Source of the DNA: Solirubrobacteraceae bacterium | GTDB taxonomy: Bacteria; Actinomycetota; Thermoleophilia; Solirubrobacterales; Solirubrobacteraceae | Reading direction: 5' to 3' | Assembly (NCBI GenBank): GCA_025934395.1 | Contig: JAICYC010000005.1 | Location: 1 to 64,000, forward strand | DNA: 64,000 bases | Shown here: positions 37,367 to 64,000 of the stretch, piece after piece | How the letters are laid out: each line of letters starts with the position of its first letter | Position numbering within the stretch: position 1 is the first letter of the stretch | Position numbers and translations under genes: made by a program | The notes under the pieces: generated by a model | The model's input: the letters and a program-made list of their open reading frames with translations, nothing else | What the model was told of the DNA's origin: nothing | The model's database searches: none

Positions 37367-38137
37367 ATGACAAAGCCCCAGACAGCGAGTGAGCGGATCG
37401 CCGCGCAGGTCACCGCTTGGCCTGGTGTGAAGGCTGGGCAAGGCAGCCGTGGCGAGTTCGGCTTCCGGGTCGGGGGCCACGAGATCGGGCACCTCCACGG
37501 CGACCACGCCGCCCATTTCGGATTCCCCCGGGAGCTTGGCGCCGAGCTGCGCGAGCAAGGGCGCGTCGGGCCCCACCCAGTCAACCGGCATTCGACCAAG
37601 ATGGCCGCGCGCAGCATCGAGGGAGAGACCGACATCCGTGAGGTGGTCGAGCTCATGCGCCTCAACTACGACCGCATCGTCGCGTCGGTGGACGTGCAGG
37701 AGGCGGACGGGGCCGAGGAGCATCGCGGAGGCCAAGCGTCCGCCGGCCCGGAGGAGGCTCCGACGAGCTCGTTCACCGACGACGAGCTGGAATACCTACA
37801 CGGCGAGCGGAGACTCGCGCGGCTGGCCACCGTGGGGGAGGACGGTACTCCGCACGTGGTCCCCGTCGGCTGGTCCTATAACGCGGAGCTCGATGCGATC
37901 GAGGTCGGTGGGCGCAACCTCGCCCAGACGAAGAAGTTCCGTGACGTGCGGGTGAATGGTCGAGCCGCGGTCGTGGTCGACGATCTCGCGAGCACAGATC
38001 CGTGGCGCCCGCGCGGGGTTGAGGTCCGCGGCAGCGCTGAGGCGATCGAGGCTCCCGGCCCGCTGATTCGGATCCACCCCGAGCGGGTGGTCTCTTGGGG
38101 GGTCAGCACCCAACGCGTGGGGCAACCCTCGGACTAG
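37367..38137 (+). CDS. DUF5519 (luciferase-like) / PPOX split-barrel fusion protein
   Basis: A 256-residue fusion. Residues 1-105 resemble DUF5519: SERIAAQVTAWPGVKAGQ, FRVGGHEIGHLHGDHAAHFGFPRELGAEL, VGPHPVNRHSTKMAARSIEGETDIREVVELMRLNYDRI. Residues 140-250 are a PPOX-class F420- or flavin-type domain: LARLATVGEDGTPHVVPVGWSYNAELDAIEVGG, KFRDVRVNGRAAVVVDDL, and RIHPERVVSWGV. A charged linker joins them. The ATG at 37367 follows GAAGGAG. A probable SoxR promoter upstream implies induction by redox stress. The reaction is unknown. Confidence 0.82.
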   Translation: MTKPQTASERIAAQVTAWPGVKAGQGSRGEFGFRVGGHEIGHLHGDHAAHFGFPRELGAELREQGRVGPHPVNRHSTKMAARSIEGETDIREVVELMRLNYDRIVASVDVQEADGAEEHRGGQASAGPEEAPTSSFTDDELEYLHGERRLARLATVGEDGTPHVVPVGWSYNAELDAIEVGGRNLAQTKKFRDVRVNGRAAVVVDDLASTDPWRPRGVEVRGSAEAIEAPGPLIRIHPERVVSWGVSTQRVGQPSD

Positions 38138-49189: not shown

Positions 49190-49628
49190 CCGCGGGTGTG
49201 AGCGCCGCGGCCCACCAGAGGTCACTCACCCCGAGCGCCCCGCTGACTCACCAGCTTTGGTCTCGGCCTGCTCGCGATGATCTCTACCGCGCCGAACCAC
49301 TCGAGCGGTCATCGACGAAGAAGGCCTGGATGATGACGTCGGAGTCGATGTGGGCTTTGGGCGAGGAAGGCCTTGCGCCGATCGTAAGAAGGAAACGCCA
49401 AGCGACGCTAGAGCAGCGTGTCAAGCCAGCTTCGTCTCCGGCGGCCGCGGCTGCGGGCCATCGTGATGCGCCTGCCCGGCCTTGCCGACTGCCACCCGGC
49501 CGGCGCCCAGGTGGGCTGCGTGGTGCGCAGCCGCCATGAGGCGCTGATCCGCTCGCGCCTGCGCGTCGACGGGCGACCGTCTCGCCGACACCGACATGCC
49601 GCTGACGTGAAGCTCGAGAGCTCTCACG
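49190..49628. other. Gene-poor stretch with debris
   Basis: No credible gene. The right part (49539-49606) matches the 3' part of the reductase gene at 61233. The left part (49300-49530) contains open but unrecognisable frames. Confidence 0.55.
49539..49606 (+). pseudogene. Fragment of NAD(P)H-reductase gene (copy of 62398-62464)
   Basis: Thirty-one bases (49539-49569) are identical to 62398-62428, encoding the conserved ALIRSRLRVD peptide. The next 35 or so bases are still clearly similar, with a one-base indel. The rest of the reductase gene is absent, so this is a non-functional remnant or recombination scar. Confidence 0.7.
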
Positions 49629-50762
49629 ATGCCTGAGTACGCCCTGCGGCTGCGTCGCTATGACCCGCAGTCGGGACAGGGCGCCTACTGGGAGCAGTTC
49701 ACGGTCGAGCTGGACGGCCACCGCTCGGTGCTCGACGCGATCCTCAAGCAGCGTGCGGAGCGCGATGGCACGATCGGCATCCGCTGCTCCTGCCGGTCGG
49801 CGATCTGCGGCTCCTGTGGAGTGCGGATCAATGACAAGCCGGGGCTGGCCTGCCACACCCATCTCGACCGCGCGGCGCAGGCCGGGCGCGAGGGCAGTCA
49901 GGTGATCGTGGTCGAGCCGATGGGCAACATGCCCGTTATCAAGGACCTGATCGTCGACATGGACGCGGTCCACTGGAAGAAGATCCAGCGGGTCACGCCC
50001 TGGCTGATCAACAAGCAGCCGATTCCCGAGCGAGAGTACGTCGTGCCCAAGGAGAGCATGCTGGACATCACCCAGTCGATGGCGTGCATCCAGTGCGGGG
50101 CGTGCGTGTCGGACTGCCTCTCGCTGGAGGTGGACCCGCTCTTCATCGGGCCGGCGCAGCTCGCGAAGGCGTATCGCTTCGTCGGCGACCCGCGCGACGC
50201 CCAGCACGAGCAGCGGCTACGCGAGCTGGCCGAGGATCCGCACGGGATCTACGACTGCACGCATTGCTGGGCGTGCATCGACGCCTGCCCCAAGGGGGTC
50301 GCGCCGATGAGCCAGATCATGCGCCTGCGGCGCCTCGCCGGCTCAGACCACCAGATCGAGGACGCCAATAACGGCCACCGCCACGAGCTCGCCTTCACCA
50401 ATAACATCGCTCGCAACGGCTTGCTGGCGGAGGCCGACGTGCTGCCCGATTCCTACGGTGGCAAGCTCCATCCGCGCGCTATCGGAGTGCTGCTGGCTTC
50501 GCTGCCGGTGATCCTGCGAGCGCTAGTGCGGCGTAAGGTCACACTGCGCAGCGCGCTGCTTCACCCCCATCGCGGGCGGTTTAAGGACCTGAGTGGCCTG
50601 TTTGACCAGATCGAGCGCCGCGCCGAGCGCCGCGAGCTGAACCTCTACATCACCGGCTACGACAGCGCCGAGCCTGCGCAAGTCGCCGGGAACGGGCCGG
50701 CGATGGTCGCCACCGGCGCCAGCCCCACACGAGGCGCCGCAGACGAGGGCGAGGGCCGATGA
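49629..50762 (+). CDS. Succinate dehydrogenase/fumarate reductase-type iron-sulfur subunit
   Basis: A 377-residue SdhB/FrdB-like protein. A plant-type ferredoxin domain (1-105) binds [2Fe-2S] with Cys55, Cys60, Cys63 and Cys75. The C-terminal ferredoxin domain has [11 protein letters not shown] (Cys153, 156, 159, 163) and [14 protein letters not shown] (Cys210, 213, 216, 220), consistent with two [4Fe-4S] (or one plus [3Fe-4S]) clusters. The extra 140 C-terminal residues go beyond ordinary SdhB (about 240). The gene overlaps the next one by 4 bases. No flavoprotein or membrane-anchor gene is in the window. Confidence 0.9.
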
Positions 50763-51661
50763 AGGTCGCCTACTGGCCGGGTTGCGTCAGCCGCGGGTTC
50801 ACCCCCGAGCTGCACGGCTCGATGGCCGCGGTCGCGCCGCTGTTGGGGATCGAGCTGATCGAGCTCGACCGCGCCGCCTGCTGCGGCGCGGGGGTGATCG
50901 CCGAGCACAACCAGGAGCTGGCCGACACGCTGAACGCGCGCACCTTCGCACTCGCGCAGCAGACCGACGGCGAGCTGATGATGAACATCTGCTCGACCTG
51001 CCAGGGAGCGCAGACCGAGTGCCAGACGCGCCTGGATGCCAACGCCGACTACCGCGCCCAGATCAACCGCTCGCTGGCGACCCAAGAGCTCTCCTACGAG
51101 GCCGGGCTGACCAACAAGAACTTCCTCTGGCTGCTGGTCGAGGAGGTCGGCCTCGACGCGCTCCAGGCCAAGGTCAGGCGGCCGCTGAGGAACCTGCGGG
51201 TCGGCCCGTTCTACGGCTGTTACATCGTGCGCCCGATGGACCAGCTCGCAATCGACGACGAGCACCCCCGCCACCGCTACCTGCACTGGCTGATCGAGGC
51301 ACTCGGCGGCACCGTGATCGACTACGCCGGCGTCTATAAGTGCTGCGGCTTCCCGATCATCACGATGAACCGCGAGGCCTCGCTCAAGCAGGCCGCCCGC
51401 CACCTCGGCGATGCGATCGACGCCGAGGCCGACTGCCTGGTGACGCCCTGTCCGCTCTGCCACCTCAACCTCGACCTCCAACAGCCGCTGGCCGCCAAGC
51501 TGGCCGGCCGCCGGCTCGGGATGCCCGTGCTCCACCTCCCCCAGCTCGTCGGGCTCGCGCTCGGCCTCGAACCCAGGCAGCTCAGCATGGACAAGCACAT
51601 CGTCAGGCCCAGCTCGGTGATCGACTGGTCGGCCGCCGTCGTGGCGGCGAGCGCAGCCTAG
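50759..51661 (+). CDS. HdrB/SdhE-like CCG-domain iron-sulfur protein
   Basis: A 300-residue protein with two CCG modules: Cys9, Cys41-42 (AACCGAG), Cys78, Cys81, Cys88, then Cys154, Cys195-196 (YKCCGFPI), Cys231 and Cys234 (TPCPLC). This matches heterodisulfide-reductase subunit B and the SdhE subunit of type E succinate:quinone reductases, where it links the Fe-S subunit to the quinone or other acceptor. The ATG overlaps the SdhB-like stop (ATGA). It has no membrane helices. It could be a type E SQR part or a separate electron carrier. Confidence 0.88.
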
Positions 51662-51705: not shown

Positions 51706-52356
51706 TTAGACGGCCGGCTCTGTAGGCTCCGCCGCCGTCTGCCCACCTGCCAGCTCTCGCGGCTGCGACGGTTCCGCAAGCCTGGGCACCAGTAGCCGGT
51801 GACTCTCGATGATCGCTGCCGCGACGTCGGCGACCTTGCGCCCGTTGTGCTGCGAGTGCTCGCGCAGCATTCCGAAGGCTGTGTCGCTGTCGATCACGTG
51901 ACGAGCCATCAGGATTCCCTTCGCCTGCTCGATGACGCTGCGACGTCCGAAAGCTCCCTGCAGGCTGTGGTACTCGGTGAAGCGCTGCAGCGTGATGTCG
52001 ATCGCGCTCTGCAGCTCCTCGGGGGAGGCGTCGACGATATAGGCGAACACACCGCGCTTGGCCGCCTCATGGACGTAGCCGGGATCGCGTGCCGCGAGCA
52101 GCGCGATCACCGGGCAGGAGGCTTCGCGGACGATCTCTCCAATTAGCTCGAGCGCGTGCTCCGAGGAGACGCCGAGCCCGACAAGCGCGACGTCGGGATC
52201 CTCTCTCGCCGTCACCGCACCGACCTCCTTGACGTCGATCTCGCGCGCGATCACCTCATGACCAAGCCCGGCGACGACCTGTGCCAGGAGGTCGAGCCTG
52301 TCGCGTCGCTCGTTGGCGATCAGCACGCGGAGATGCTCGACTCCGTTCTCAGCCAT
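51706..52356 (-). CDS. ANTAR-domain response regulator-like RNA-binding protein
   Basis: About 216 residues. A pseudo-receiver (1-120, LRVLIANERRDRLDLLAQVVAGLGHEVI, with weak conservation of the phospho-acceptor site) is followed by an ANTAR domain (about 135-190, RRSVIEQAKGILMARHVIDSDTAFGMLREHSQHNGRKVADVAAAII), which binds tandem-hairpin RNA and prevents termination. A 35-residue tail follows. ATG 52356 is preferred; ATG 52389 adds 11 residues. No adjacent sensor kinase. Confidence 0.88.
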   Translation of the reverse strand: MAENGVEHLRVLIANERRDRLDLLAQVVAGLGHEVIAREIDVKEVGAVTAREDPDVALVGLGVSSEHALELIGEIVREASCPVIALLAARDPGYVHEAAKRGVFAYIVDASPEELQSAIDITLQRFTEYHSLQGAFGRRSVIEQAKGILMARHVIDSDTAFGMLREHSQHNGRKVADVAAAIIESHRLLVPRLAEPSQPRELAGGQTAAEPTEPAV

Positions 52357-52389
52357 CGCCCGATCGTGAGGGCGGGGGACCAATGTCAT

Positions 52390-52876: not shown

Positions 52877-54238
52877 ATGAGCGAACCGGCTGGACGGCAT
52901 CGGGTGGTCGTCGTAGGGGGCGGCTTCGGCGGCCTTCAGGCCGTCCGCAGCCTGCGGCGTGCGCCGGTCGATGTCACGCTCGTCGATCGCCGCAACTTCC
53001 ACCTGTTTCAGCCGCTGCTCTACCAAGTCGCGACCGGCGCGCTCTCGCCAGCGGAGATCGCCACGCCCCTGCGCGTCGTTCTCAAGCGCCAGAAGAACGT
53101 TCGCGTGGTGTTGGGTGAGGTTCGCGACTTTGACCTCGATCATCGGCGCCTGGTGCTGGACGCGCTCGCGAACGGCGACGACGGCCTCGTCATTCCCTAT
53201 GAGACGCTGATCGTCGCGGGCGGCTCACGCTATTCCTACTTCGGGCACGACGAGTGGCGGCCATTCGCGCTCGAGATCAAGTCACTGGAGAGCGCCCTTG
53301 CCGTCAGGCGGCGGATCTTCACCGCGTTCGAGGCGGCCGAGATCGAGCAGGACCGCAAGCGCCGCGAGGCGTGGCTCACCTTCGTGGTCGTGGGTGGGGG
53401 ACCGACCGGGGTCGAGATGGCGGGACAGATCGCCGAGCTCGCGCGCGACACGCTGTCTCGTGACTTCCACTCGGTCGATCCCCGGCGCGCCCGGATTCTG
53501 CTCGTCGAGGCATCCGAGCGCCTCCTACCAGCGTTCTCGCCACGGCTCTCGACACGGGCGGCGCACACGCTGCAGGAGCTCGGGGTCACCGTGCTCCTCG
53601 ACACGTCGGTCGTCGACCTCGACGAGGAGTCGGTCGTGAGTAAGGGCCCTGGCGGCAGGAGCACGCACGTCCCGACGCGCACGATCGTCTGGGCTGCCGG
53701 CGTCGTCGCCGGTGAATTGTCGGGTGCGCTCGCCGCCGCCAGCGGCGCAGCGCTCGACCGCACGGGACGCGTGGCGGTGGGACCTGAGCTGACGGTCGAG
53801 GGACACCCAGAGGTGATCGCGCTCGGCGACATGGTGAGCGCGCACGACACGGCGGGCAACGAGGTCCCGCTGCCCGGCCTCGCCTCAACGGCGATGCAGC
53901 AGGGCCGTTACGCCGCCAGGTCCGTCCGCCGGCGCGCGCGGGGCAAGTCCTCAGAGCCCTTCCAGTTCGTGGACAAGGGCAACCTCGCGACGATTGGCCG
54001 GGCCCACGCCGTCGCGGAAATCAAGGGCATTCAGACCAGCGGCATGCTCGCCTGGCTGATCTGGTTGAGCGTCCACATCTTCTACCTGATCGGCCTGCAG
54101 AACCGGCTGCTCGTGCTCACCCGCTGGGCATTCAGCTTTGTGACCCGCGGACGCGGCGCGAGGCTGATCACCGGGGAATCGGCTGCACCCGCAACGGCCG
54201 GGACCGCGACGGTCAGCGGCAGCGAGAGCAACAGCTGA
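52877..54238 (+). CDS. ndh: Type II NADH:quinone oxidoreductase (NDH-2)
   Basis: A 453-residue FAD enzyme that oxidises NADH without pumping protons. FAD-binding VVVVGGGFGGLQAVRSLR (residues 10-27) with NFHLFQPLLYQVATGALSP, NADH-binding VVVGGGPTGVEMAGQIAELA, AALDRTGRVAVGPELTVEGHPEVIALGDM and a C-terminal membrane-anchoring helix (LAWLIWLSVHIFYLIGLQNRLLVLTRWAFSF) are all present. It could feed the respiratory chain together with the SdhB-HdrB module. ATG 52877. Confidence 0.93.
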   Translation: MSEPAGRHRVVVVGGGFGGLQAVRSLRRAPVDVTLVDRRNFHLFQPLLYQVATGALSPAEIATPLRVVLKRQKNVRVVLGEVRDFDLDHRRLVLDALANGDDGLVIPYETLIVAGGSRYSYFGHDEWRPFALEIKSLESALAVRRRIFTAFEAAEIEQDRKRREAWLTFVVVGGGPTGVEMAGQIAELARDTLSRDFHSVDPRRARILLVEASERLLPAFSPRLSTRAAHTLQELGVTVLLDTSVVDLDEESVVSKGPGGRSTHVPTRTIVWAAGVVAGELSGALAAASGAALDRTGRVAVGPELTVEGHPEVIALGDMVSAHDTAGNEVPLPGLASTAMQQGRYAARSVRRRARGKSSEPFQFVDKGNLATIGRAHAVAEIKGIQTSGMLAWLIWLSVHIFYLIGLQNRLLVLTRWAFSFVTRGRGARLITGESAAPATAGTATVSGSESNS

Positions 54239-54645: not shown

Positions 54646-55245
54646 GTGCCCAGCGTCGTTTCGATCCTTGAATGCGATCCGGACCTAGCGGAGGACCTGA
54701 GCGACGAGGATCTCGCGATCGCGCGCCGCCACCTTGTGGCCGGCGTTGAGGGCTACCCACGCGGCACATGGATCGTCGGCCCGGACGATTTCGACCCGGT
54801 CGCGAACCTCGGGCTATTACTCGTCAGAGGCCTGCTCGCGCGGCAAGTCACAATCGGCGACCACACGTCCGCCGAGCTCCTCGGCCCAGGCGACGTGCTG
54901 CAACCATGGCTGCGGATCGGCCCCGATCAGTCGGTCGCCGTCGAGGTCGGTTGGGAAGTGGTCCAGGCTGTGCAGGCAGCGGTGCTCGATCGCGCGTTCT
55001 GCGCCCGAGTAAGCAGGTGGCCGGAGATCACCGCGGCCATCTCGCGACGCATCCTGCAGCGCAGCCACTGGCTGGCATTCCACCTCGCGGTCTGCCACCT
55101 GCGCCGCGTCGACGATCGGCTTCTGCTGGTGTTTTGGCACTTCGCTGACAGGTGGGGCACAGTAACCCCGGAGGGGGTGCTGCTCGACATTCCGCTGACG
55201 CACGAGTTGCTCGCCGCAGTCGTAGGTGCGCGCCGTCCCATCTGA
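54646..55245 (+). CDS. Crp/Fnr-type regulator truncated inside its DNA-binding domain
   Basis: A 199-residue protein with an effector-binding N-terminal part lacking typical cAMP-contact residues, a dimerisation helix, and the beginning of the HTH (DDRLLLVFWHFADRWGTVTPEGVLLDIPLTHELLAAVVGARRPI). It ends at a TGA exactly where relatives continue with the recognition helix. Downstream in the same frame the homologous remainder can be read (VGRLTDQGRVRSRPRSRWLLLG). As it stands the protein cannot bind DNA normally. GTG 54646 follows AAGGAG. Confidence 0.75.
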   Translation: MPSVVSILECDPDLAEDLSDEDLAIARRHLVAGVEGYPRGTWIVGPDDFDPVANLGLLLVRGLLARQVTIGDHTSAELLGPGDVLQPWLRIGPDQSVAVEVGWEVVQAVQAAVLDRAFCARVSRWPEITAAISRRILQRSHWLAFHLAVCHLRRVDDRLLLVFWHFADRWGTVTPEGVLLDIPLTHELLAAVVGARRPI

Positions 55246-61232: not shown

Positions 61233-62801
61233 ATGAGCAAGCAGACCTTCATCATCGTCGGTGCGAGCCTCGCCGGCGCCAAGGCGGCGGAGGCGCTGCG
61301 CGAGCACGGCTTTGAGGGGCGTGTCGTGCTGGTCGGCTCAGAGCCCCAGCGACCTTACCTGCGCCCGCCGCTGTCGAAGGAGTACCTGCGCGGCGACGTT
61401 GGCCTCGAGAAGGTCTACGTCTACGAGGAGCCCTTCTATGAGGCCCATGCGATCGAGCTGCGCACCTCAACGACCGTCGAGCGCGTCGAGCCGAATTCCT
61501 CTGAGGTCGTGTGCGCCGGCGGCGAGCGGCTGCGCTATGACCGGCTGCTGTTGAGCACGGGCGCTCAGCCCCGTCGGCTCTCGATTCCCGGAGCAGGGCT
61601 CGGGGAGATCTACTATCTGCGCAGTCTCGCCGATTCCGAGCGGCTACGCGAGCGCCTAAGCCGCGGTGGAAGGCTGGTGGTGGTCGGCGCGGGCTGGATC
61701 GGCTGCGAGGTGGCTGCGTCAGCCCGCCAGATGGGGCTTGAGGTCACGGTGATCGATCCTGCCTCGGTGCCGCTTGAGCTTGTGCTCGGGGTTGAGATCG
61801 GCGCGATCTACCGCGAGATCCACGCAGACCACGGCGTCCAGGTGCTGCTCGGAACCGGCGTGGAGAGCTTCGAGGGCGTCGGCACGGTCGAGCGGGTACG
61901 CGTCTCGGACGGGCGCGCCATTGAGTGCGACTTCGTCGTCGTGGGCGTGGGCGCCACGCCCAGTACCCAGCTTGCCGCCGGCAGCGGGATCGTGGTCAAG
62001 GACGGCATCGTCACCGACGAATTCCTCCAGACCGCCGTGGATGGCGTGTTCGCGGCCGGCGACGTCGCCAATGCCCGCCACCCGCTGTTCGGGCAGCTCC
62101 GCGTCGAGCACTACGCCAACGCGTTGAACCAGGGGCCGGCGGCGGCGCGCAACATGCTCGGCGGTGCCGATGCCAGCGACCGTGTGCTCGATCACCCAAT
62201 CGCCTATGACCGCATCCCCTACTTCTACTCCGACCAGTACGACGTCGGCATGGAGTACTCGGGCCATGCCACCGGCTGGGAGGAGGTGGTGTCCCGCGGC
62301 GACGTGGAGGGGCGTGCGTTCATCGCCTTCTGGCTGCGCGACCAGCGGATCCTGGCCGCGATGAACGTCAACGTGTGGGACGTGACCGATCAGATCCAGG
62401 CGCTGATCCGCTCGCGCCTGCGCGTCGATCGCGACCGCCTCGCCGACCCTGACACGCCGCTGACCGAGCTCGCCCCGGAGCCTTGCACGCGCGATGCTGA
62501 GAGTGTCGCGGCGAGCTTGGAGTCAAAGCCCGTTCCAGGCAAGGTGGCCAAGCAGCCCCCCGTTCCGTGGCCCCGGCCCCACAGCCGACTGGAGGTCGAG
62601 GTCGAGGATGTCGTGAGGGCCCTGCGCGGACACCAAGTGCTCAGTCACGCAGGGCTCGTGGATGCCTGCGGAGCGGCTCACTGGGCAGATCGCAGCTTTA
62701 CGCAAGCGCTCGGCGAGGCGGTTTCCACCGGAAGGGTCAGACGCCTCGGTGATGACCTTTACGAGATCGCCGAGCCGTCGTCTCCGGCGAGAACGGCATG
62801 A
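61233..62801 (+). CDS. Ferredoxin-reductase-type FAD/NAD(P) oxidoreductase with extra C-terminal domain
   Basis: A 522-residue protein. Residues 1-410 match pyridine-nucleotide-disulfide/rubredoxin or ferredoxin reductases: FAD motif IIVGASLAGAKAAEALREHGF with RPYLRPPLSKEYL, NAD motif VVVGAGWIGCEVAASARQMGLEVTVID and TAVDGVFAAGDVANARH, then VWDVTDQIQALIRSR. After residue 430 comes an extra 90-residue region ending in a small helical/winged-helix-like unit (EVEDVVRALRGHQVLSHAGLVDACGAAHWADRSFTQALGEAVSTGRVRRLGDDLYEI). ATG 61233 follows GAGGGGAG. Part of its 3' region is duplicated at 49539. Confidence 0.9.
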   Translation: MSKQTFIIVGASLAGAKAAEALREHGFEGRVVLVGSEPQRPYLRPPLSKEYLRGDVGLEKVYVYEEPFYEAHAIELRTSTTVERVEPNSSEVVCAGGERLRYDRLLLSTGAQPRRLSIPGAGLGEIYYLRSLADSERLRERLSRGGRLVVVGAGWIGCEVAASARQMGLEVTVIDPASVPLELVLGVEIGAIYREIHADHGVQVLLGTGVESFEGVGTVERVRVSDGRAIECDFVVVGVGATPSTQLAAGSGIVVKDGIVTDEFLQTAVDGVFAAGDVANARHPLFGQLRVEHYANALNQGPAAARNMLGGADASDRVLDHPIAYDRIPYFYSDQYDVGMEYSGHATGWEEVVSRGDVEGRAFIAFWLRDQRILAAMNVNVWDVTDQIQALIRSRLRVDRDRLADPDTPLTELAPEPCTRDAESVAASLESKPVPGKVAKQPPVPWPRPHSRLEVEVEDVVRALRGHQVLSHAGLVDACGAAHWADRSFTQALGEAVSTGRVRRLGDDLYEIAEPSSPARTA

Positions 62802-62967: not shown

Positions 62968-64000
62968 ATGAACGAGCATGAGCAGTGGTCAGAGCTGGGC
63001 CAGCAGCTGCGCGTCGACTCTGTGCGCGCGGCGGCGGCGGCGGGATCCGGTCACCCGACGTCGTCGATGTCGGCGGCGGATCTCATGGCGGTGCTCCTCG
63101 CGAGGTACCTGCGCTGTGACTTCGCGGCGCCGGCTGCTGCGCTCAACGACCATCTGATCTTCTCCAAGGGTCACGCATCCCCGCTGCTCTACTCGCTGTA
63201 CAAGGCGGCGGGCGCGATCTCAGACGAGGAGCTGTTGACCTTCAGAAAGCTCGGAAGCCGGTTGCAGGGGCACCCCGCGCCCGCGATCCCGTGGGTCGAT
63301 GTCGCCACCGGCTCGCTGGGCCAGGGCTTGCCGTGCGCCGTCGGGATCGCTCTGTCCGCCAAGCGCCTGGAGCGGCTGGGCTACCGCATCTGGGTGCTCT
63401 GCGGCGACAGCGAGATGGCGGAGGGCTCGATCTGGGAGGCCTTCGATCACGCCGGCCATGAGGCGCTGGACAACCTGATCGCGATCATCGACGTCAACCG
63501 TCTGGGCCAGCGCGGGGAGACCATGCTCGGCTGGAACACCGCCGCCTATGCGCGGCGGGCTGAGGCGTTCGGCTGGCGGGCGCTCGAGATCGACGGCCAC
63601 GATCTGGCGCAGATCGACGATGCATACGAAGAGGCGCTGGCCGGCGACGGCCAACCGGTGGCGATCGTCGCGCGCACGATCAAGGGCAAGGGCGTCGCCT
63701 CCGTGGAGAACCGCAACGGGTTTCACGGCAAGCCGCTCGACGATCCCGATGCGGCGATCGCAGAGCTCGGCGGGCTGCGCGCGCTCACCGTCTCCCCGAC
63801 CCCGCCGACCGGCGACGAGGAGCCCTACCGGTTCGCGACCGCAGACGCGCCGGCGGCGAGATGGGATCTCGGCGAGGAAGTCCCCACGCGACTGGCCTTC
63901 GGTGAGGCGCTGACGGCGCTCGGCGCCGCCGACGGGGGGATCGTCGTGCTCGACGGAGAGGTCGGCAACTCGACCTATGCCGGGCTCTTCGGCGAGGCGC
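62968..64000 (+). CDS. Transketolase (partial, C-terminus outside window)
   Basis: N-terminal 344 residues of a transketolase, a TPP enzyme of the pentose phosphate pathway. LRVDSVRAAAAAGSGHPTSSMSAADLMAVLLARYLR, DHLIFSKGHASPLLYSLYKAAG, the TPP motif WVLCGDSEMAEGSIWEAFDHAGHEALDNLIAIIDVN and the start of the pyrimidine-binding domain (ATRLAFGEALTALG-type) are visible. The ATG at 62968 follows GAAGGGAG. The gene is open to the right edge. A gene for the partner enzyme transaldolase is not in view. Confidence 0.95.
   Translation, partial: MNEHEQWSELGQQLRVDSVRAAAAAGSGHPTSSMSAADLMAVLLARYLRCDFAAPAAALNDHLIFSKGHASPLLYSLYKAAGAISDEELLTFRKLGSRLQGHPAPAIPWVDVATGSLGQGLPCAVGIALSAKRLERLGYRIWVLCGDSEMAEGSIWEAFDHAGHEALDNLIAIIDVNRLGQRGETMLGWNTAAYARRAEAFGWRALEIDGHDLAQIDDAYEEALAGDGQPVAIVARTIKGKGVASVENRNGFHGKPLDDPDAAIAELGGLRALTVSPTPPTGDEEPYRFATADAPAARWDLGEEVPTRLAFGEALTALGAADGGIVVLDGEVGNSTYAGLFGEA

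What the first reader, a model, noticed from the sequence alone, without database searches (positions are those of the whole stretch)
49629..51661. SdhB-HdrB pair without flavoprotein or membrane subunit
A three-cluster SdhB-like protein with a 140-residue C-terminal extension is translationally coupled to a CCG-domain HdrB/SdhE-like protein, but no SdhA, SdhC/D or HdrA/C is near. In type E succinate:quinone reductases these occur with SdhA. Here the pair may be a stand-alone electron bifurcation or transfer module, or use an SdhA encoded elsewhere.
Basis: partly seen in the sequence, partly recalled or inferred. Interest (0 to 1): 0.6.

Follow-up and report, generated by a model that had tools for sequence, protein, structure and literature searches.

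The report
Extra SdhB–SdhE pair without SdhA
This soil bacterium (an uncultured relative of Solirubrobacter) carries, besides a complete succinate dehydrogenase operon, a second conserved copy of only the electron-transfer half of that enzyme, so the missing flavoprotein is most likely borrowed from the main operon and the pair is a variant of a known enzyme rather than a new kind of machine.

Summary
Window 49629-50762 encodes a type-E SdhB (2Fe-2S plus two 4Fe-4S motifs). Its stop overlaps by 4 bp the start of a CCG-domain SdhE/HdrB-like gene (50759-51661) with the full ten-cysteine motif. No sdhA, sdhC/D, hdrA or hdrC is adjacent. The C-terminal extension is ordinary for this family. The same genome has a complete sdhA-sdhB-sdhE operon on another contig (C138), so this pair is a second copy. 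Orthologous A-less pairs occur in two more species of the genus. Both also keep the full operon, and a decayed copy lies in a genome of another genus. The three intact pairs form one clade (support 100) that groups with sdhABE operons of other genera, not with the genus's own. They evolve under purifying selection (dN/dS 0.10-0.23, as in the operon) and keep every cluster ligand. The pair sits in a rearranged accessory region with pentose-phosphate enzymes, NDH-2 and ferredoxin-reductase-like genes. Most likely it is a laterally acquired type-E module that lost sdhA once and docks on the resident SdhA as an alternative succinate:quinone (or quinol:fumarate) arm. The nearest precedent is Synechocystis, with two SdhB and one SdhA. 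Electron bifurcation is not supported.

The parts
49629..50762 (+). sdhB2: type-E SdhB-like iron-sulfur subunit, 377 aa (2Fe-2S domain ~6-114, two 4Fe-4S motifs ~150-224, family-typical C-terminal extension)
50759..51661 (+). sdhE2: two-CCG-domain SdhE/HdrB-like subunit, 300 aa, complete ten-cysteine motif, 4-bp ATGA overlap with sdhB2
49539..49606 (+). 68-bp remnant of a ferredoxin-reductase-like gene (89.7% identical to window 62398-62464, inside the gene at 61233-62801); a rearrangement scar directly upstream of sdhB2
51706..52389 (-). response regulator with ANTAR domain, convergent with sdhE2; not shared with the other A-less loci
52877..54238 (+). NDH-2-like NADH dehydrogenase of the accessory region (76% identical on the G003 contig that carries the pair)
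54646..55245 (+). CRP-like regulator (no Pfam hit; name by resemblance only); close orthologue (75%) in the genus only on G003 C252, about 2 kb from its pair
61233..62801 (+). ferredoxin-reductase-like flavoprotein (Pyr_redox_2 + Reductase_C), accessory region; homologues on all four contigs carrying the pair
62968..64000 (+). transketolase (runs past the window end, to C118:64848); close homologues (58-80%) in the genus only on the contigs that carry the A-less pair

Best explanation
The pair is a second, laterally derived type-E succinate dehydrogenase electron-transfer module (SdhB2-SdhE2) whose own sdhA was lost once, before the three carrier species diverged. It is kept as an alternative arm for the resident SdhA encoded by the complete operon elsewhere. 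Proposed working: succinate is oxidised on the shared SdhA (or fumarate reduced, if run backwards); electrons pass through the 2Fe-2S and two 4Fe-4S clusters of SdhB2 to the CCG-domain clusters of SdhE2, and from there to the quinone pool at the membrane surface without transmembrane helices. Residues changed only in this clade lie at the second 4Fe-4S site of SdhB2 (F214W), in the loop by the 2Fe-2S cluster (G69D) and near the second CCG cluster of SdhE2 (R162Q), so the quinone/redox end rather than the flavoprotein dock may have been retuned. Shown: gene content, second-copy status, clade, selection, cluster ligands, accessory neighbourhood. Inferred: lateral origin, docking on the resident SdhA, direction of flow, quinone as partner, altered redox properties.
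For: A complete sdhA-sdhB-sdhE operon is on C138. Three intact A-less pairs are known (window; G003 C252 = L011; G020 C81 = L010), each in a genome with a complete operon (L090, L055, L088). They are one clade (support 100) that groups with sdhABE operons of other genera; uniting it with the clade of the genus's own operons is rejected at p-AU 0.021. dN/dS is 0.10-0.23, against 0.12-0.22 for operon sdhB/sdhE/sdhA of the same genomes. Of 135 SdhB and 152 SdhE columns conserved in at least 97% of 66 operon copies, only 3-5 and 1-2 differ. The N-terminal 2Fe-2S domain, which faces SdhA in known complex II structures, is no less conserved within the A-less clade (80-94%) than in operon copies of like divergence. 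By elimination: SdhA is the only FAD_binding_2 protein scoring above 40 bits in G003; in G000 the only other is a 518-aa aspartate-oxidase-like protein. Precedent: Synechocystis has one SdhA, two SdhB and an HdrB-like subunit (PMC11014987).
Against: No direct evidence that SdhB2 binds SdhA; no expression data. Only 3 of 24 genus genomes have an intact pair, and a fourth genome of another genus has a decayed copy, so it is dispensable. All carriers are draft metagenome assemblies (83-91% complete); a distant sdhA2 could in principle be unassembled in each. G020 has further FAD_binding_2 flavoproteins.
Confidence: 0.55

Rival explanations
1. The pair takes electrons from a different flavoprotein of the accessory region (the NADH-dependent ferredoxin-reductase-like proteins with Reductase_C domain, NDH-2, or an ETF-quinone oxidoreductase) through its plant-type 2Fe-2S domain, and passes them via SdhE2 to quinone or a disulfide: a complex-II module detached from dicarboxylates.
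For: Ferredoxin-reductase-like genes lie on all four contigs that carry the pair, and a remnant of one lies directly upstream of sdhB2 in the window. NDH-2 genes are on three contigs. ETF-QO genes lie 1-4 kb away in L010 and L011.
Against: None of these is in an operon with the pair in any intact case; distances are roughly 10-25 kb for the ferredoxin reductases; the ETF-QO of the own genome is on another contig. Columns conserved in SdhA-bearing operons are kept.
Confidence: 0.15
2. The pair is a redundant paralogue with no distinct role, maintained only as dosage backup or on the way to loss.
For: Patchy distribution; a decayed copy in G039 with an internal deletion and frame disruptions; local rearrangement around all copies.
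Against: Purifying selection equal to the operon's over dS 0.34-0.71; shared clade-specific substitutions; the two genes stay overlapping or directly abutting in all three.
Confidence: 0.22
3. The pair is an HdrB/HdrC-like thiol:disulfide or electron-bifurcating module.
For: SdhE2 is homologous to HdrB over its full length (E 1e-41); the CCG clusters could in principle handle a disulfide.
Against: No HdrA, hydrogenase or formate dehydrogenase partner found near the pair; SdhB2 carries an SdhB N-terminal 2Fe-2S domain and scores as SdhB, not HdrC; closest relatives are in sdhABE operons.
Confidence: 0.04
4. The absence of sdhA is an assembly or binning artefact.
For: All carriers are metagenome assemblies.
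Against: Three independent assemblies show other genes upstream and no sdhA; contigs are 76-93 kb; no sdhA remnant upstream.
Confidence: 0.02

Closest known systems
Type-E (SdhABE) succinate:quinone oxidoreductase, incl. methylmenaquinol:fumarate reductase of Wolinella/Campylobacter
   Same: SdhB with cysteine pattern for a second 4Fe-4S cluster in place of 3Fe-4S, and SdhE with the ten-cysteine motif, as described for type E (PMC2680327)
   Different: No sdhA with this pair; the type-E operon of the same genome is elsewhere
Cyanobacterial SDH of Synechocystis (one SdhA, SdhB1 and SdhB2, HdrB/Slr0201)
   Same: Two SdhB paralogues with one SdhA, HdrB-like subunit instead of SdhC/D, SdhB with C-terminal extension (PMC11014987)
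   Different: Here both SdhB and SdhE are duplicated as an overlapping pair, the second pair groups with other genera's operons, and it sits in an accessory region
Thiol:fumarate reductase TfrB of methanogens
   Same: SdhB-like and HdrB-like parts in one unit; the NCBIfam TfrB model matches both proteins below cut-off
   Different: Separate polypeptides here; no sign of a CoM/CoB system
Heterodisulfide reductase HdrB
   Same: SdhE2 aligns over its whole length
   Different: No HdrA/HdrC; partner is an SdhB

Membership tests
Type-E SdhB | 2Fe-2S domain plus two CxxCxxCxxxC motifs (two 4Fe-4S sites) | tested here: met
   pattern as in PMC2680327
Type-E SdhE | two CCG domains, ten-cysteine motif | tested here: met
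Type-E SQR complex | co-encoded SdhA flavoprotein | tested here: not met
   absent at the locus and in both intact orthologous loci; an SdhA exists on another contig
Type-E SQR complex | assembly of SdhA with SdhB2-SdhE2 and succinate:quinone or quinol:fumarate activity | not testable with these tools
   needs biochemistry
Heterodisulfide reductase (HdrABC) / bifurcating complexes | HdrA flavoprotein and HdrC partner | tested here: not met
   none found near the pair; SdhB2 scores as SdhB and only weakly as HdrC
Thiol:fumarate reductase (TfrAB) | SdhB-CCG fusion TfrB above model cut-off | tested here: not met
   129 bits against a cut-off of 385 for SdhB2 and 25 bits for SdhE2; separate chains

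The most novel reading that the evidence does not exclude
The SdhB2-SdhE2 pair has been freed from dicarboxylate chemistry and works as a general NAD(P)H- or flavoprotein-fed electron arm to the quinone pool (or a disulfide) for the accessory sugar/pentose-phosphate region, i.e. a complex-II-derived module without the succinate site.
Probability: 0.12. Interest if true: 0.65.

Novelty: new variant of a known kind. Interest (0 to 1): 0.33.

Why it matters
If the pair docks on the resident SdhA, one flavoprotein serves two exchangeable electron-transfer arms, a clean natural test of how the SdhB/SdhE half of type-E complex II sets quinone choice or direction. It also shows sdhBE moving and persisting as a unit without sdhA, which bears on how complex II was assembled from modules. 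If the pair uses another donor, it would be a new use of the SdhB-CCG unit.

Tried and rejected
Electron bifurcation or Hdr-type complex: no HdrA/HdrC. In-genome recent duplication of the own operon: the tree and AU test place the pair with other genera's operons; an earlier AU test with only three own operons was not meaningful because other operons of the genus interleave, so it was redone with the 18-row clade. That clade was named after seeing the tree, so p 0.021 is only moderate. Fresh loss of sdhA in this genome alone: two orthologous loci lack it too. L012 looked A-less at first, but the last codons of sdhA lie at its contig edge. A third SdhB in G039 (C83) follows a full sdhA at a contig end and is of another lineage, perhaps a binning contaminant. 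A relaxed N-terminal (SdhA-facing) domain as a sign of lost SdhA contact was looked for and not found. YN00 dN/dS failed numerically; only NG86 values are used. No close plasmid relatives (all under 60% identity). No paper on this pair was found in six literature searches. No structure prediction was run.

Full report
What is there. The first is a 377-aa SdhB with an N-terminal 2Fe-2S domain and two cysteine motifs for 4Fe-4S clusters. The second is a 300-aa protein with two CCG domains and all ten motif cysteines, homologous to HdrB over its whole length. Stop and start overlap by four bases (ATGA). The pattern of two four-cysteine motifs in SdhB and the ten-cysteine SdhE is that described for type-E complex II (PMC2680327). 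The C-terminal extension is shared by the family, including the genome's own other SdhB, and is not a special feature.

The rest of the genome. The own genome (3.0 Mb, 151 contigs, 91% complete) encodes one SdhA, in a complete sdhA-sdhB-sdhE operon on contig C138. Its only other protein with the SdhA C-terminal domain is a 518-aa flavoprotein, probably L-aspartate oxidase (inferred from size and score). So the finding is a second sdhBE pair, not the genome's only complex II.

Relatives. Of about 82 loci compared, nearly all with enough upstream sequence have sdhA directly upstream; the exceptions are the window, L010 and L011. L012 proved to have the end of sdhA at its contig edge. L010 and L011 belong to two other species of the same genus (G020 C81, G003 C252), and each of those genomes also has a complete operon (L088, L055). 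Searches of 146 genomes of the family and 232 of the order found no further intact second pair of this clade. A genome of a different genus, G039, has a decayed copy: SdhB2 breaks off at about residue 135, SdhE2 resumes at about 45, and the frame is disrupted, yet two clade signatures (INDKPG, VRPMDQL) remain. G039 also has its own complete operon (L149).

Origin. In trees of concatenated SdhB+SdhE the three intact pairs form one clade (support 0.999 and 100) that groups with operons of other genera of the family rather than with operons of its own genus. Holding it together with the 18-row clade that contains the three resident operons costs 67 log-likelihood units (p-AU 0.021, group named after seeing the tree). 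The simplest history is one acquisition (or a deep duplication) and one loss of sdhA before the three species diverged.

Function is being kept. dN/dS among the three pairs is 0.10-0.23, the same as among operon copies of sdhB, sdhE and sdhA in the same genomes (0.12-0.22) (NG86 only). All cluster ligands are intact. At columns conserved in at least 97% of 66 operon copies, the three pairs share just three changes: SdhB G69D, SdhB F214W and SdhE R162Q (A177Q in two of three). F214 sits between ligand cysteines of the second 4Fe-4S motif. The N-terminal domain, which faces SdhA in known complex II structures, is as conserved within the A-less clade as in operon copies of like divergence. That is what one would expect if it still meets SdhA, but it is not proof.

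Neighbourhood. The window right of about 41.7 kb, and the contig to 76.4 kb, is a mosaic accessory region shared in rearranged form with G003 C252, G020 C81 and G039 C73. Shared genes include ferredoxin-reductase-like flavoproteins, transketolase, transaldolase, glucose-6-phosphate and 6-phosphogluconate dehydrogenases, NDH-2, a CRP-like regulator, sigma factors, universal stress proteins, an AlkA-like glycosylase and a molybdopterin oxidoreductase fused to a b-type cytochrome domain (not every gene is on every contig). The transketolase (58-80% identity) and the CRP-like gene (75%) occur at that identity in the genus only on contigs that carry the pair. In G003 a same-strand run Usp-DUF488-ferredoxin reductase-transketolase-transaldolase-NDH-2 is seen. 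The AlkA-like gene follows sdhE2 closely in L010 and L011, and is convergent with it in G039. Directly upstream of sdhB2 in the window lies a 68-bp remnant of a ferredoxin-reductase gene, a scar of this reshuffling.

How it most likely works. By elimination the resident SdhA is the only SdhA-type flavoprotein available. In G003 it is the only FAD_binding_2 protein scoring above 40 bits; in the own genome the only other is the aspartate-oxidase-like one. Three draft genomes would all have to lack an unassembled second sdhA. Synechocystis offers a precedent, with one SdhA, two SdhB and an HdrB-like subunit (PMC11014987). I therefore favour a shared-SdhA model with an alternative electron arm (0.55). 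Redundancy (0.22) and another electron donor from the accessory region (0.15) follow. Electron bifurcation has no support.

Limits. The quinone partner, the direction of electron flow and the effect of the three clade-specific substitutions are inference.

Noticed in passing
window 41691-64000 (contig C118 to 76445): Mosaic accessory region shared in rearranged order by three species of the genus and one other genus, rich in pentose-phosphate enzymes, NDH-2, ferredoxin reductases, Usp, AlkA and sigma factors; window left of about 41 kb is essentially not shared with those contigs.
   Followed up: partly
L148:7645-8890: Decayed sdhB2-sdhE2 copy in G039 (different genus) with an internal deletion and frame disruption.
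   Followed up: yes
window 49539-49606: Remnant of a ferredoxin-reductase-like gene, 89.7% identical to window 62398-62464.
   Followed up: yes
L121:15833-17599 (C118:73833-75599): 588-aa protein with an N-terminal cytochrome-b561-like domain and a C-terminal YedY-like molybdopterin domain, 77-79% conserved on three contigs of the accessory region.
   Followed up: partly
L148:9955-10848: DUF2231 membrane domain fused to a Rieske [2Fe-2S] domain, adjacent to a ferredoxin reductase gene.
   Followed up: no
L011:8110-8850: GAF-ANTAR regulator whose end touches the sdhB2 start; in the window a different ANTAR response regulator is convergent with sdhE2.
   Followed up: no
window 37367-38137: 256-aa protein joining a 'Luciferase domain' (PF17648) and a pyridoxamine-phosphate-oxidase-like domain.
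   Followed up: no
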